42,160 nt of DNA. Source: a virus. The position numbers were made by a program, and so were the translations under genes. Of the stretch, positions 5,413-40,671 are shown piece by piece. Under the pieces are notes generated by a model. It was not told the DNA's origin and did no database searches. It saw nothing but the letters and a program-made list of their open reading frames with translations. The DNA is taken from IMG/VR virus record IMGVR_UViG_3300031787_000268, positions 1 through 42,160 of that record; one strand, 5' to 3'. How positions within the stretch are numbered: position 1 is the stretch's first letter; each line of letters starts with the position of its first letter.

Positions 5413-5470
5413 GAGACCTTGTTGGTCTCTGCACACGGGGTACCCGGGGGTAAAACCTCGGGTACCTTTT
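5413..5470 (+). terminator. Two tandem hairpins, the second a rho-independent terminator
   Basis: GAGACC (5413-5418) and GGTCTC (5424-5429) form a small stem with loop TTGTT. GGTACCCG (5439-5446) and CGGGTACC (5459-5466) form an 8-bp outer stem followed at once by TTTT (5467-5470). This should end transcription of the nuclease/Sak4 operon. Confidence 0.8.
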
Positions 5471-5521: not shown

Positions 5522-5602
5522 GGCCCTGTAGCACAATGGTAGTGCGACGGCTCCGTAACCATCCGGGCCGACGAAGTGTGGGTTCGACTCCCACCAGGGC
5601 CA
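5522..5602 (+). tRNA. tRNA-like gene with oversized anticodon region; identity unresolved
   Basis: Acceptor GGCCCTG (5522-5528) pairs with CAGGGCC (5595-5601). The D arm is GCAC/GTGC (5531-5534, 5542-5545) with an AATGGTA loop. The T arm is GTGGG/CCCAC (5578-5582, 5590-5594) with loop TTCGACT. No CCA is encoded. Between the D and T arms there are 32 nt, about 9-10 more than a class I tRNA. The stem CGGC (5548-5551)/GCCG (5567-5570) equals that of the neighbouring tRNA-Gln but encloses 15 nt instead of 7. An alternative fold, GACGG/CCATC with one mismatch, gives the 8-nt loop CTCCGTAA and a 14-nt variable region. The anticodon (CCG, CGT or other) cannot be assigned. Confidence 0.6.
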
Positions 5603-5780: not shown

Positions 5781-5930
5781 AGTACACGGGAGTACATGGT
5801 TAGTACACGGCGTTTCCGACCTAGGAAACAAGGCCTTTACCCCCGAGTACATTAGTACATGTCTCTTTTTGTAAAGTAAAGTAGAGATATATAGTAGAAG
5901 TAATCCCAAACCCCCGTGTACTCATGTACT
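5781..5930 (+). promoter_or_regulatory. Left copy of a 150-bp seven-site AGTACAC element with AT-rich core
   Basis: Heptamers AGTACAC or AGTACAT lie at 5781-5787, 5791-5797, 5802-5808, 5846-5852 and 5854-5860; inverted copies GTGTACT and ATGTACT lie at 5916-5922 and 5924-5930. The 55-nt core between the two inner pairs (5861-5915) is AT-rich and holds TTTGTA (5868-5873) with TATAGT 16 nt downstream, a plausible sigma70-like promoter firing towards the gene at 5956. An inner repeat GTTTCC/GGAAAC is at 5812-5829. An inverted copy with identical spacing is at 39804-39953. It is probably an operator-promoter bound by a phage protein. Confidence 0.75.
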
Positions 5931-38058: not shown

Positions 38059-38179
38059 TTTCCTTGGGGTCCAGAGGGTGAGGAACTATACTTCAGTCCG
38101 TCCCAAAAACTTAAAAACACGTGTGTACTCGTGTACTGTTCCCCAGAGCATATCCCCCCTGACCCCCGGAGTCTACCCC
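38059..38179 (+). promoter_or_regulatory. Divergent control region between late operon and helicase gene, with paired GTGTACT sites
   Basis: It holds GTGTACT at 38123-38129 and 38131-38137 (8-nt period, same pair geometry as in the 150-bp elements) and the AT-rich run AAAAACTTAAAAAC (38104-38117). On the minus strand TATAGT (about 38091-38086) could be a -10 box for the late operon. The pair sits between the two divergent starts, so one protein could control both directions. Confidence 0.55.
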
Positions 38180-39649
38180 TTGACCACCTTGAGTCTTCCT
38201 GTCACCCGTCCGGTCCTCGTGGCCAAGTTCCTCGTCAACAAGTTCTTCCGTACACCCGGGGGTAAGCAGGGCATCTGGTACCACAAGGGCAAGTTCTGGT
38301 GCTGGCGGGCCGAGGTCTGGAAGGAGTACACCCGCGACCAGATGCGTGCCGAGATATCCCGCACCCTCATGGACGCCACCGTCATCAAGGAGGACGGCAG
38401 CACCAGCCCCCTGAACCCCGGCACGTCCACGGTTGAGGACGTGACCACCTTCGTACAGGACCTCTGCGAGTGTCCCTACGAGAGGTTGCCCGTGTGGTTG
38501 CACGGCACGACCCCCGACGGTCTGAACCCCGATCTCGTCGTTGCGTTCCGCGACAAGCTCGTCAGCGTCGAGGGGGGTGAGTTCAAGTTGATGGACCGCA
38601 CCGAGGACTGGCTGGACAACGGCGTGCTCGATGCCTCATGGGAGGACGGCCAGTCCGGGGAGTGCCCCACGTGGATGCGGTGCCTAGCCGAGTGGTCCGG
38701 GGGTGACCCCCAGTGGATCGCCCTCATGCAGCAGTGGATGGGCTACAACTTGGTTCCGTCCCGTAGGCGTGCCCGTTGGATGCTGAAGCACGGCAGCATC
38801 CGTGGCGGTAAGGGCACCAGCGACCGGGTGTTGCAGCGGATCATGGGTCCCACAGTGTGCCGGGGCATGTCCATGATGGGGCTGACGCGGCAGTTTGGTC
38901 TCACGGGGCTGGTCCACGCACGGAGTATCCTCATCTCGGAGTGCCACGAGATGCAGAGTGCCCAGGGGAGCCAGCTTGCCAGCCTCATCAAGAGTGCTCT
39001 GGGTGAGGACCCCCTCGATGTGGATGTGAAGTACGGGGCGGTGCTCCAGAATGTGGTGCTCCGATGTGCCATCACGGTGTCCTCCAATGAGATCCCCACC
39101 ATGCCCAACAAGGGGTCCGGGTTGTCGGGCAAGATGCTGGTCCTCCCCTTCGTACATAGCTTCGTGGACCGCGAGGACTTCAACCTTGAGGACAAGTTGG
39201 CAGCGGAACGGTCCGCCATCGCCGTGTGGGCCATGCAGGGGGCCCTTCAGGTGAGTGGTGCATCGTCCCGGTGGGCCGTCGCCAACGGGACCCGCGAGGT
39301 GATGCTGGAGTACACCACCTACAAGAACCCCGTGGGCCAATTTCTGGAGGACGCCATGTCCGTCCGCGTGGGTAACCGGGTGGATTTCAACGAGGTGGTG
39401 TGGCCCCGCTGGCAGAAGTGGTGTGCGGAGAACAAGCACACCGAGAACACCTCGAAGAAGGAGTTGCAGACCCGCCTCAAAGAGCAGGCCGGATGGCATC
39501 TGAAGGTCGTTAGGCCTGTAGCCGGGGGTCCCTACTACCTTGAGGGTGCTATCCCCAAGTCGTGGGATGTCAGGCAGGGCCCCGTTGGGCCCGTGGTAGG
39601 TGTGGAGGACCGCGAGGACACCGACCTTCAGGAAGGCCCCAACGATTAA
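38180..39649 (+). CDS. SF3/D5-type phage replicative helicase, 489 aa
   Basis: The start chosen is TTG 38180 with CCCGGAG 8 nt upstream; the open frame upstream of it is intergenic. An N-terminal domain (residues 31-60, WYHKGKFWCWRAEVW) resembles the D5_N region. Helicase motifs follow: Walker A-like HGSIRGGKGTS (204-214), motif B in ILISECHE (250-257), motif B' KSALGEDPLDVDVKY (271-285) and motif C ITVSSNEIP (298-306). A C-terminal winged-helix-like region (NPVGQFLEDAMSVRVGNRVD) is also typical. No separate primase domain is visible, so priming must come from elsewhere. Confidence 0.85.
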   Translation: MTTLSLPVTRPVLVAKFLVNKFFRTPGGKQGIWYHKGKFWCWRAEVWKEYTRDQMRAEISRTLMDATVIKEDGSTSPLNPGTSTVEDVTTFVQDLCECPYERLPVWLHGTTPDGLNPDLVVAFRDKLVSVEGGEFKLMDRTEDWLDNGVLDASWEDGQSGECPTWMRCLAEWSGGDPQWIALMQQWMGYNLVPSRRRARWMLKHGSIRGGKGTSDRVLQRIMGPTVCRGMSMMGLTRQFGLTGLVHARSILISECHEMQSAQGSQLASLIKSALGEDPLDVDVKYGAVLQNVVLRCAITVSSNEIPTMPNKGSGLSGKMLVLPFVHSFVDREDFNLEDKLAAERSAIAVWAMQGALQVSGASSRWAVANGTREVMLEYTTYKNPVGQFLEDAMSVRVGNRVDFNEVVWPRWQKWCAENKHTENTSKKELQTRLKEQAGWHLKVVRPVAGGPYYLEGAIPKSWDVRQGPVGPVVGVEDREDTDLQEGPND

Positions 39650-39803: not shown

Positions 39804-39953
39804 AGTACACGAGTACACGTGTCATTACGTATTCTTTTATATATTACTTTACTTTTACTTTTAGAAAAGAGAGATGTACTCATGTACTAGGAGGTATTAC
39901 ACATGAGATATGACCTTTTGGAGGCGTGTAGTCCCCGTGTACTGATTTGTACT
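39804..39953 (-). promoter_or_regulatory. Right (mirror) copy of the 150-bp seven-site element with AT-rich core
   Basis: Heptamers lie at 39804-39810 and 39812-39818 (AGTACAC), 39874-39880 and 39882-39888 (ATGTACT), 39926-39932 (GTGTAGT, one mismatch), 39937-39943 (GTGTACT) and 39947-39953 (TTGTACT). Read on the minus strand the spacing equals that of 5781-5930 exactly. The 55-nt core (39819-39873) is very AT-rich; on the minus strand TTCTAA and TATATA are 17 nt apart, like a promoter. On the plus strand AGGAGG (39889-39894) follows. The first 20 core bases match the left core at about 16 positions when inverted. Confidence 0.75.
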
Positions 39954-40204: not shown

Positions 40205-40233
40205 ACTACACACGGACTACACGTTTAGTACAC
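40205..40233 (+). promoter_or_regulatory. Third array of AGTACAC-like heptamers (three sites, 11-nt period)
   Basis: ACTACAC (40205-40211), ACTACAC (40216-40222) and AGTACAC (40227-40233) lie head to tail one helical turn apart, upstream of the gene at 40354. The geometry is like the three-site side of the two 150-bp elements (10-11 nt period). Confidence 0.55.
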
Positions 40234-40353: not shown

Positions 40354-40629
40354 ATGAAACGACTGACCGCGATGGCTAAGCACTACCAAACCCACACCCA
40401 ACCCCACCTCGACACCCAGTGCAAACGCCACCTCGACCTCGCCATCACCCACCACACCAAGTCCCTCACCACCCCATCACACACCGACGCCGTCGCCCAC
40501 CACAACACCGCCCTTTACCACCTAGAAACCGCCTCCCTTTACAACTTCGACCTAACCCTTACAACAACCTACAACGGACAACTCCTCGTTGACCTCCTCG
40601 GCAAACGTCAGCACATGCCTCCAATGTAA
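40354..40629 (+). CDS. Small His/Thr-rich unknown protein, 91 aa
   Basis: The start chosen is ATG 40354 (MKRLTAMAKHYQTH) with GGAG 10-11 nt upstream; an open extension to 40285 has no ribosome site. The protein is rich in His and Thr and probably helical (HLDLAITHHTKSL; DAVAHHNTALYHLETASLYN), like a small helical bundle. Its codons favour A/C endings (CAC, ACC), unlike the G-rich older genes. The stop codon overlaps the first of three 14-bp iterons. The function is unknown; such first-in-line small genes are often early host-takeover factors. Confidence 0.65.
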   Translation: MKRLTAMAKHYQTHTQPHLDTQCKRHLDLAITHHTKSLTTPSHTDAVAHHNTALYHLETASLYNFDLTLTTTYNGQLLVDLLGKRQHMPPM

Positions 40630-40671
40630 CCGCTTACACAAGATGTAACCGCTTACATGTAACCGCTTACA
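40625..40671 (+). repeat. Three near-palindromic 14-bp iterons TGTAACCGCTTACA
   Basis: Identical copies lie at 40625-40638, 40644-40657 and 40658-40671 (periods 19 and 14). Each is TGTAA-CCGC-TTACA, a dyad with a 4-bp centre. Such repeats bind dimeric regulators or replication initiators. The first overlaps the stop of the 91-aa gene. Confidence 0.85.

What the first reader, a model, noticed from the sequence alone, without database searches (positions are those of the whole stretch)
5781..5930. Two 150-bp elements with seven heptamer sites at base-identical spacing, in mirror orientation 34 kb apart
At 5781-5930 and, inverted, at 39804-39953, copies of AGTACAC/AGTACAT are spaced 7-3-7-4-7-37-7-1-7-55-7-1-7 without a single base of difference. 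The sequences between them have diverged, except for part of the AT-rich 55-nt core. Conserved spacing with diverged filler implies that a protein array selects the geometry. The elements flank the whole leftward late region plus helicase. They could be an operator-promoter pair of a phage regulator, a paired replication origin, or a recombination/inversion site. I do not know of such an element described in any phage.
Basis: partly seen in the sequence, partly recalled or inferred. Interest (0 to 1): 0.92.

Follow-up and report, generated by a model that had tools for sequence, protein, structure and literature searches.

The report
Duplicated phage replication origin, SaPI/P4-helicase type
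The two matching 150-bp elements are most likely two copies of one replication origin, the DNA sites where the phage's own helicase loads to start copying the genome; the origin type is known from phage satellites, but here it recurs across an uncultured phage family, with a second copy about 34 kb away in this genome and in two relatives.

Summary
Across the window only 5781-5930 (E1) and, inverted, 39804-39953 (E2) carry the seven-site geometry (0 and 2 mismatches over 49 site bases); two triplet sites in E2 have one mismatch each.

The elements are best read as helicase-loading replication origins. E2 lies about 155 bp downstream of a D5/SF3 'P4-family' helicase. In 31 distinct family loci (this virus included), a motif-blind scan finds the same design (direct pair, AT-rich core, inverted pair) just after the helicase in 18, against 0 of 329 control windows. 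The half-site word differs between lineages (TGTACCA, TGCCGGG, GACCA, AGTGACG; AGTACAY here) and tracks the helicase's C-terminal winged helix better than its ATPase part. The closest solved structure by sequence and by fold is SaPI5 primase-helicase. Published PICI/SaPI origins have this anatomy.

E1, a second copy 33-35 kb away where early and late modules meet, also occurs in two relatives, in their own motif. In one it exactly fills the gap between two converging ORFs, which argues against an operator-promoter. Inverted orientation is not conserved. Nothing here is experimental; whether E1 fires or only assists is open.

The parts
5781..5930 (+). E1: second (distal) origin-like element; triplet + inner pair + AT-rich core + inverted pair
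   Evidence: full-template scan 0 mismatches; motif-blind scan score 39/42
5781..5808 (+). E1 auxiliary triplet AGTACAC / AGTACAT / AGTACAC, 10- and 11-bp pitch
5846..5860 (+). E1 inner iteron pair AGTACAT-T-AGTACAT, 8-bp pitch
5861..5915 (.). E1 AT-rich 55-nt core (65% AT in a genome of about 60% GC), proposed melting site
5916..5930 (-). E1 inverted iteron pair
39804..39953 (-). E2: proximal origin element, about 155 bp downstream of the helicase stop codon
   Evidence: full-template scan 2 mismatches; motif-blind score 39/42; family-wide position
39804..39818 (+). E2 iteron pair AGTACAC-G-AGTACAC
39819..39873 (.). E2 AT-rich core; carries TCTTTTATATAT, which resembles the cores of relatives read in helicase orientation
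39874..39888 (-). E2 inverted iteron pair AGTACAT / AGTACAT
39926..39953 (-). E2 auxiliary triplet AGTACAA / AGTACAC / ACTACAC
38180..39649 (+). D5/SF3 helicase of the P4 family (start inferred from homologues); C-terminal winged helix at residues about 400-455; proposed origin-binding protein
   Evidence: TIGR01613 125.6 bits against cut-off 108.7; Pox_D5; SaPI5 match; model
38123..38137 (-). isolated iteron pair about 40 bp upstream of the likely helicase start; possible autoregulatory site
40205..40233 (+). looser triplet ACTACAC / ACTACAC / AGTACAC at 11-bp pitch in the early leader

Best explanation
E2 is a self-loading-helicase replication origin. The phage's D5/SF3 P4-family helicase is encoded just upstream and binds the heptamers (iterons) through its C-terminal winged helix. 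One pair on each side of the AT-rich core, pointing inward, seats one helicase hexamer per side; the two rings melt the core and leave in opposite directions. The triplet is an auxiliary binding or regulatory array. E1 is a second copy of the same origin (or a P4 crr-like accessory site that E2-bound helicase touches by looping), placed where the early and late modules meet and read by the same helicase. Shown here: anatomy, position, family-wide conservation with motif turnover, the same motif in both copies within a genome, helicase homology and a predicted winged helix. Inferred: binding, two-hexamer loading, melting, and that E1 fires.
For: Design found after the helicase in 18 of 31 distinct family loci against 0 of 329 control windows; in 876 kb of shuffled DNA nothing reaches 37/42. 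The motif differs by lineage while the 9-bp pitch (8 in this virus) and a 46-70 bp core persist. Motif distance correlates with C-terminal domain distance after removing the ATPase part (partial Mantel r 0.32, p 0.003) and not the reverse (r -0.09, p 0.76). Two-copy genomes use one motif in both copies: AGTACAY in the window, TGCCGGG in G005 and G010. The helicase profile hits only SaPI5 primase-helicase 7ola in the PDB (E 5e-21); the AlphaFold model (pLDDT 85.8) has the same best match by fold. SaPI and SCC helicases bind repeats just downstream of their own gene through the C-terminal domain (PMC7581432); PICI origins 'always' have two iteron sets flanking an AT-rich region (PMC6092414). Marinobacter phage PS6, with a distant helicase, shows a similar plan.
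Against: No binding or replication data. 13 of 31 loci score below 34, and the syntenic relative G002 shows no clear element. Eight other large element-bearing contigs have no second copy, so E1 is not essential to the family. The Mantel test uses 25 related loci with the register set by hand. GC skew does not show a clean origin-type switch.
Confidence: 0.8

Rival explanations
1. E2 is the only origin; E1 is an accessory site (P4 crr-like enhancer or handcuffing/copy-control site) that works by helicase-mediated looping and does not itself fire.
For: E1 is optional in the family and its orientation relative to E2 varies. P4 needs a second site, crr (own knowledge; the P4 ori site is cited in PMC6092414).
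Against: E1 has a complete AT-rich core flanked by inward pairs, more than a binding array needs.
Confidence: 0.3
2. E1 and E2 are operator-promoter regions bound by a phage transcription regulator that switches early and late genes.
For: A heptamer pair sits upstream of the helicase and the late operon (38123-38137). E1 is followed 26 bp on by an ORF with a Shine-Dalgarno sequence, and E2 by a small ORF with one.
Against: In G005, E1 lies exactly between converging ORFs; across the family the array is tied to the 3' side of the helicase gene; no conserved regulator gene was recognised in the genes scanned. The two elements face unlike genes from opposite strands.
Confidence: 0.08
3. The elements are inverted recombination or segment-inversion sites, or ends of a transposon-like module carrying the late genes.
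For: Two inverted 150-bp elements bracket a 34-kb module.
Against: Core only 30/55 identical, no shared crossover core; direct orientation in G005 and G010; two records of this virus agree on one orientation; no recombinase recognised in the genes scanned.
Confidence: 0.03

Closest known systems
PICI / SaPI replication origins (rep-ori)
   Same: Origin directly 3' of the initiator helicase gene; two iteron sets flanking an AT-rich region; homologous D5-type helicase with a C-terminal DNA-binding domain (PMC6092414, PMC7581432).
   Different: Here in tailed-phage genomes of about 50-56 kb, with a strict two-plus-two inward pair geometry, no primase domain recognised on the helicase, and in some genomes a second distant copy.
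Satellite phage P4 alpha protein with its origin and crr
   Same: P4-family helicase (TIGR01613 above cut-off); a winged helix that binds repeats at the origin (PMC4234260); a second distant site needed in cis (own knowledge).
   Different: P4 alpha carries its own primase; crr is built differently (own knowledge); not compared by sequence here.
SCCmec Cch2 helicase and its downstream direct repeats
   Same: Helicase of the same broad class acts on repeats just downstream of its gene via its C-terminal domain (PMC7581432).
   Different: Three 5-nt iterons, not two inward pairs around an AT-rich core.
Archaeal plasmid pRN1 origin downstream of orf904
   Same: Origin lies 3' of an SF3 helicase gene with a C-terminal winged helix (PMC4234260).
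   Different: A stem-loop of about 100 bp without iterons.

Membership tests
PICI/SaPI-type replication origin | Lies immediately 3' of the initiator helicase gene | tested here: met
   E2 starts about 155 bp after the helicase stop; +85 to +450 in relatives. E1 does not lie next to the helicase, so this row is met for E2 only.
PICI/SaPI-type replication origin | Two iteron sets flanking an AT-rich region | tested here: met
   E1 and E2, cores 65-75% AT; 18 of 31 family loci
PICI/SaPI-type replication origin | Cognate D5/SF3 Rep helicase homologous to SaPI Rep | tested here: met
   7ola E 5e-21 by sequence and best match by fold
PICI/SaPI-type replication origin | Rep C-terminal domain binds the iterons | tested here: inconclusive
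   Predicted winged helix and motif co-variation; no binding assay
PICI/SaPI-type replication origin | Confers autonomous replication | not testable with these tools
   needs a plasmid assay
PICI (the satellite element itself) | Small satellite that depends on a helper phage | tested here: not met
   Own TerL, tail proteins and DNA polymerase in a genome of about 56 kb; shared origin type, not a PICI
P4-family primase C-terminal (TIGR01613) | Score above curated cut-off | tested here: met
   125.6 bits against 108.7
P4 ori/crr two-site replicon | Second distant site required in cis | not testable with these tools
   E1 found in the window, G005 and G010 only; requirement unknown

The most novel reading that the evidence does not exclude
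A two-origin phage replicon in which the same helicase loads at, and perhaps bridges, two origins at the two ends of the late module, so that early and late arcs are copied or topologically isolated separately; the arrangement arose more than once (opposite relative orientation, different iteron words) in one uncultured phage family.
Probability: 0.3. Interest if true: 0.75.

Novelty: new variant of a known kind. Interest (0 to 1): 0.58.

Why it matters
It gives a testable, sequence-predictable origin for an uncultured phage family, and extends beyond satellites an origin plan that its describers reported from 'no other known bacterial replicon'. The family offers a natural series of helicase winged helices paired with their iteron words, useful for working out how D5/SF3 initiators read DNA and how double hexamers are spaced. 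The second, motif-matched copy raises the question of why a phage would keep two origins 33-35 kb apart.

Tried and rejected
Literal AGTACAY arrays elsewhere: only this virus in IMG/VR. A loose GTACA 8-bp pattern gave 21 further stretches whose arrays I did not link to this family. TGCCGGATGTGCCGGG palindromes in other contigs (L200, L202-L205, L210) have no helicase homologue in the stretch held and were set aside. Blastn of both elements and TerL tblastn against GenBank phages: no match. Rfam on the E2 region: nothing credible. GC skew as origin evidence: the helicase gene is a positive island on its own strand in all genomes tested, no clean switch, so not used. Promoter reading: rejected mainly on the G005 convergent context. 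Inversion site: rejected on sequence divergence and direct orientation in relatives. Literature text search for AGTACA repeats: nothing relevant.

Full report
1. Observation. The two elements are real. E1 (5781-5930, +) and E2 (39804-39953, -) share spacing 7-3-7-4-7-37-7-1-7-55-7-1-7. Scanning both strands with the whole seven-site template gives 0 mismatches at E1, 2 at E2, then only self-overlaps at 13-15 and background at 20 or more. AGTACAY is five-fold enriched (30 against 6.1). Two E2 triplet sites carry one mismatch each; site letters agree 45/49, the core 30/55, the 37-nt gap 12/37. Both are present in another, permuted, 100% identical record of 55,587 bp that supplies the roughly 14 kb missing from the window; that stretch has no site cluster.

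2. Context. E2 lies about 155 bp after the stop codon of a helicase gene (38180-39649, start inferred from homologues) and before the early genes; E1 begins 2 nt after a tRNA-Gln near the end of the early module, with the leftward late module beyond. Genes recognised include TerL, an A-family DNA polymerase, an exonuclease, Sak4, ThyX and UDG. The helicase is P4 family (TIGR01613), with DUF5906, D5_N and Pox_D5 matches in its family.

3. Relatives. TerL led to relatives at 37-42% identity, and a helicase alignment led to 80 loci. Reading the DNA after the helicase showed the same plan with other letters: a direct pair at 9-bp pitch, an AT-rich stretch, an inverted pair. A motif-blind score (maximum 42) over whole contigs picked out, at 35 or more, only E1 and E2 in the window, two elements each in G005 and G010, and one each in G009 and G011. 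Among 31 distinct family loci with enough downstream DNA (this virus included), 18 reach 34 within 600 bp of the helicase stop; 0 of 329 control windows do. Shuffled genomes give none at 37 or more in 876 kb. Pitch is 9 bp in relatives and 8 bp in this virus; cores are 46-70 bp.

4. Half-sites turn over (TGTACCA, TGCCGGG, GACCA, AGTGACG, AGTACAY) and do so with the C-terminal domain: partial Mantel r 0.32 (p 0.003) given the ATPase part, and -0.09 (p 0.76) the other way (25 loci; register set by hand). The C-terminal end folds as a winged helix (residues about 400-455) in an AlphaFold model with mean pLDDT 85.8. The only PDB sequence match and the best fold match is SaPI5 primase-helicase. In the literature held, SaPI Rep and SCC Cch2 use their C-terminal domain to bind repeats directly downstream of their gene, Rep apparently as two hexamers (PMC7581432), and PICI origins always show two iteron sets flanking an AT-rich region (PMC6092414).

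5. The second copy. G005 and G010 also carry E1, in the TGCCGGG motif of their own E2, 33.0 and 35.2 kb away through the late module; in the window 34 kb. In G005, E1 (L068 5460-5542) is bounded by a + strand stop ending at 5459 and a - strand stop at 5543, and in G010 a + strand ORF also ends on the base before E1, leaving no room for a promoter of either flanking ORF. In G005 and G010 the two copies are in direct orientation, in the window inverted, so mirror orientation is not a conserved requirement. Eight other large element-bearing contigs (G009, G015-G020, G022) lack E1. The window and the G005/G010 clade are not sisters in the helicase tree, though the window's branch is very long; separate gain and repeated loss cannot be told apart.

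6. Mechanism. Shown: anatomy, position, conservation with motif turnover, concerted motif in both copies, helicase homology. Inferred: helicase binding, one hexamer per inward pair, core melting, bidirectional forks. For E1: a second firing origin (about 0.6) or a P4 crr-like accessory site (about 0.3).

7. Novelty. The origin kind is known; its occurrence as a family-wide trait of uncultured tailed phages, with strict pair geometry, iteron turnover and a distant second copy in some, is a new variant. No cultured close relative was found, though Marinobacter phage PS6, with a distant helicase, shows a similar plan with a 107-bp core.

Noticed in passing
window 40625-40671: Three copies of the palindrome TGTAACCGCTTACA, operator-like, in the early leader.
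   Followed up: no
window 5522-5602: tRNA gene for which ARAGORN reports a four-base anticodon (ccgt), close to a tRNA-Gln.
   Followed up: no
L032:7028-8476: 482-aa ORF with an N-terminal zinc-ribbon-like CPLC...CYKC; candidate primase, since the helicase has no recognised primase domain.
   Followed up: no
L037:14050-14700 (G002): Long GC-rich, apparently noncoding stretch after the helicase; no Rfam family at gathering threshold.
   Followed up: partly
downstream of E2 in G005, G010, G011 and L112: Conserved block near CCTAGACGG..CGGTGTTT downstream of the element.
   Followed up: no
L212 near 2918 (Planctomycetaceae MAG) and L211 near 4450 (Myxococcales MAG): Helicase relatives in bacterial MAGs with pair-core-inverted pair arrays downstream; possible hosts or binned phage contigs.
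   Followed up: partly
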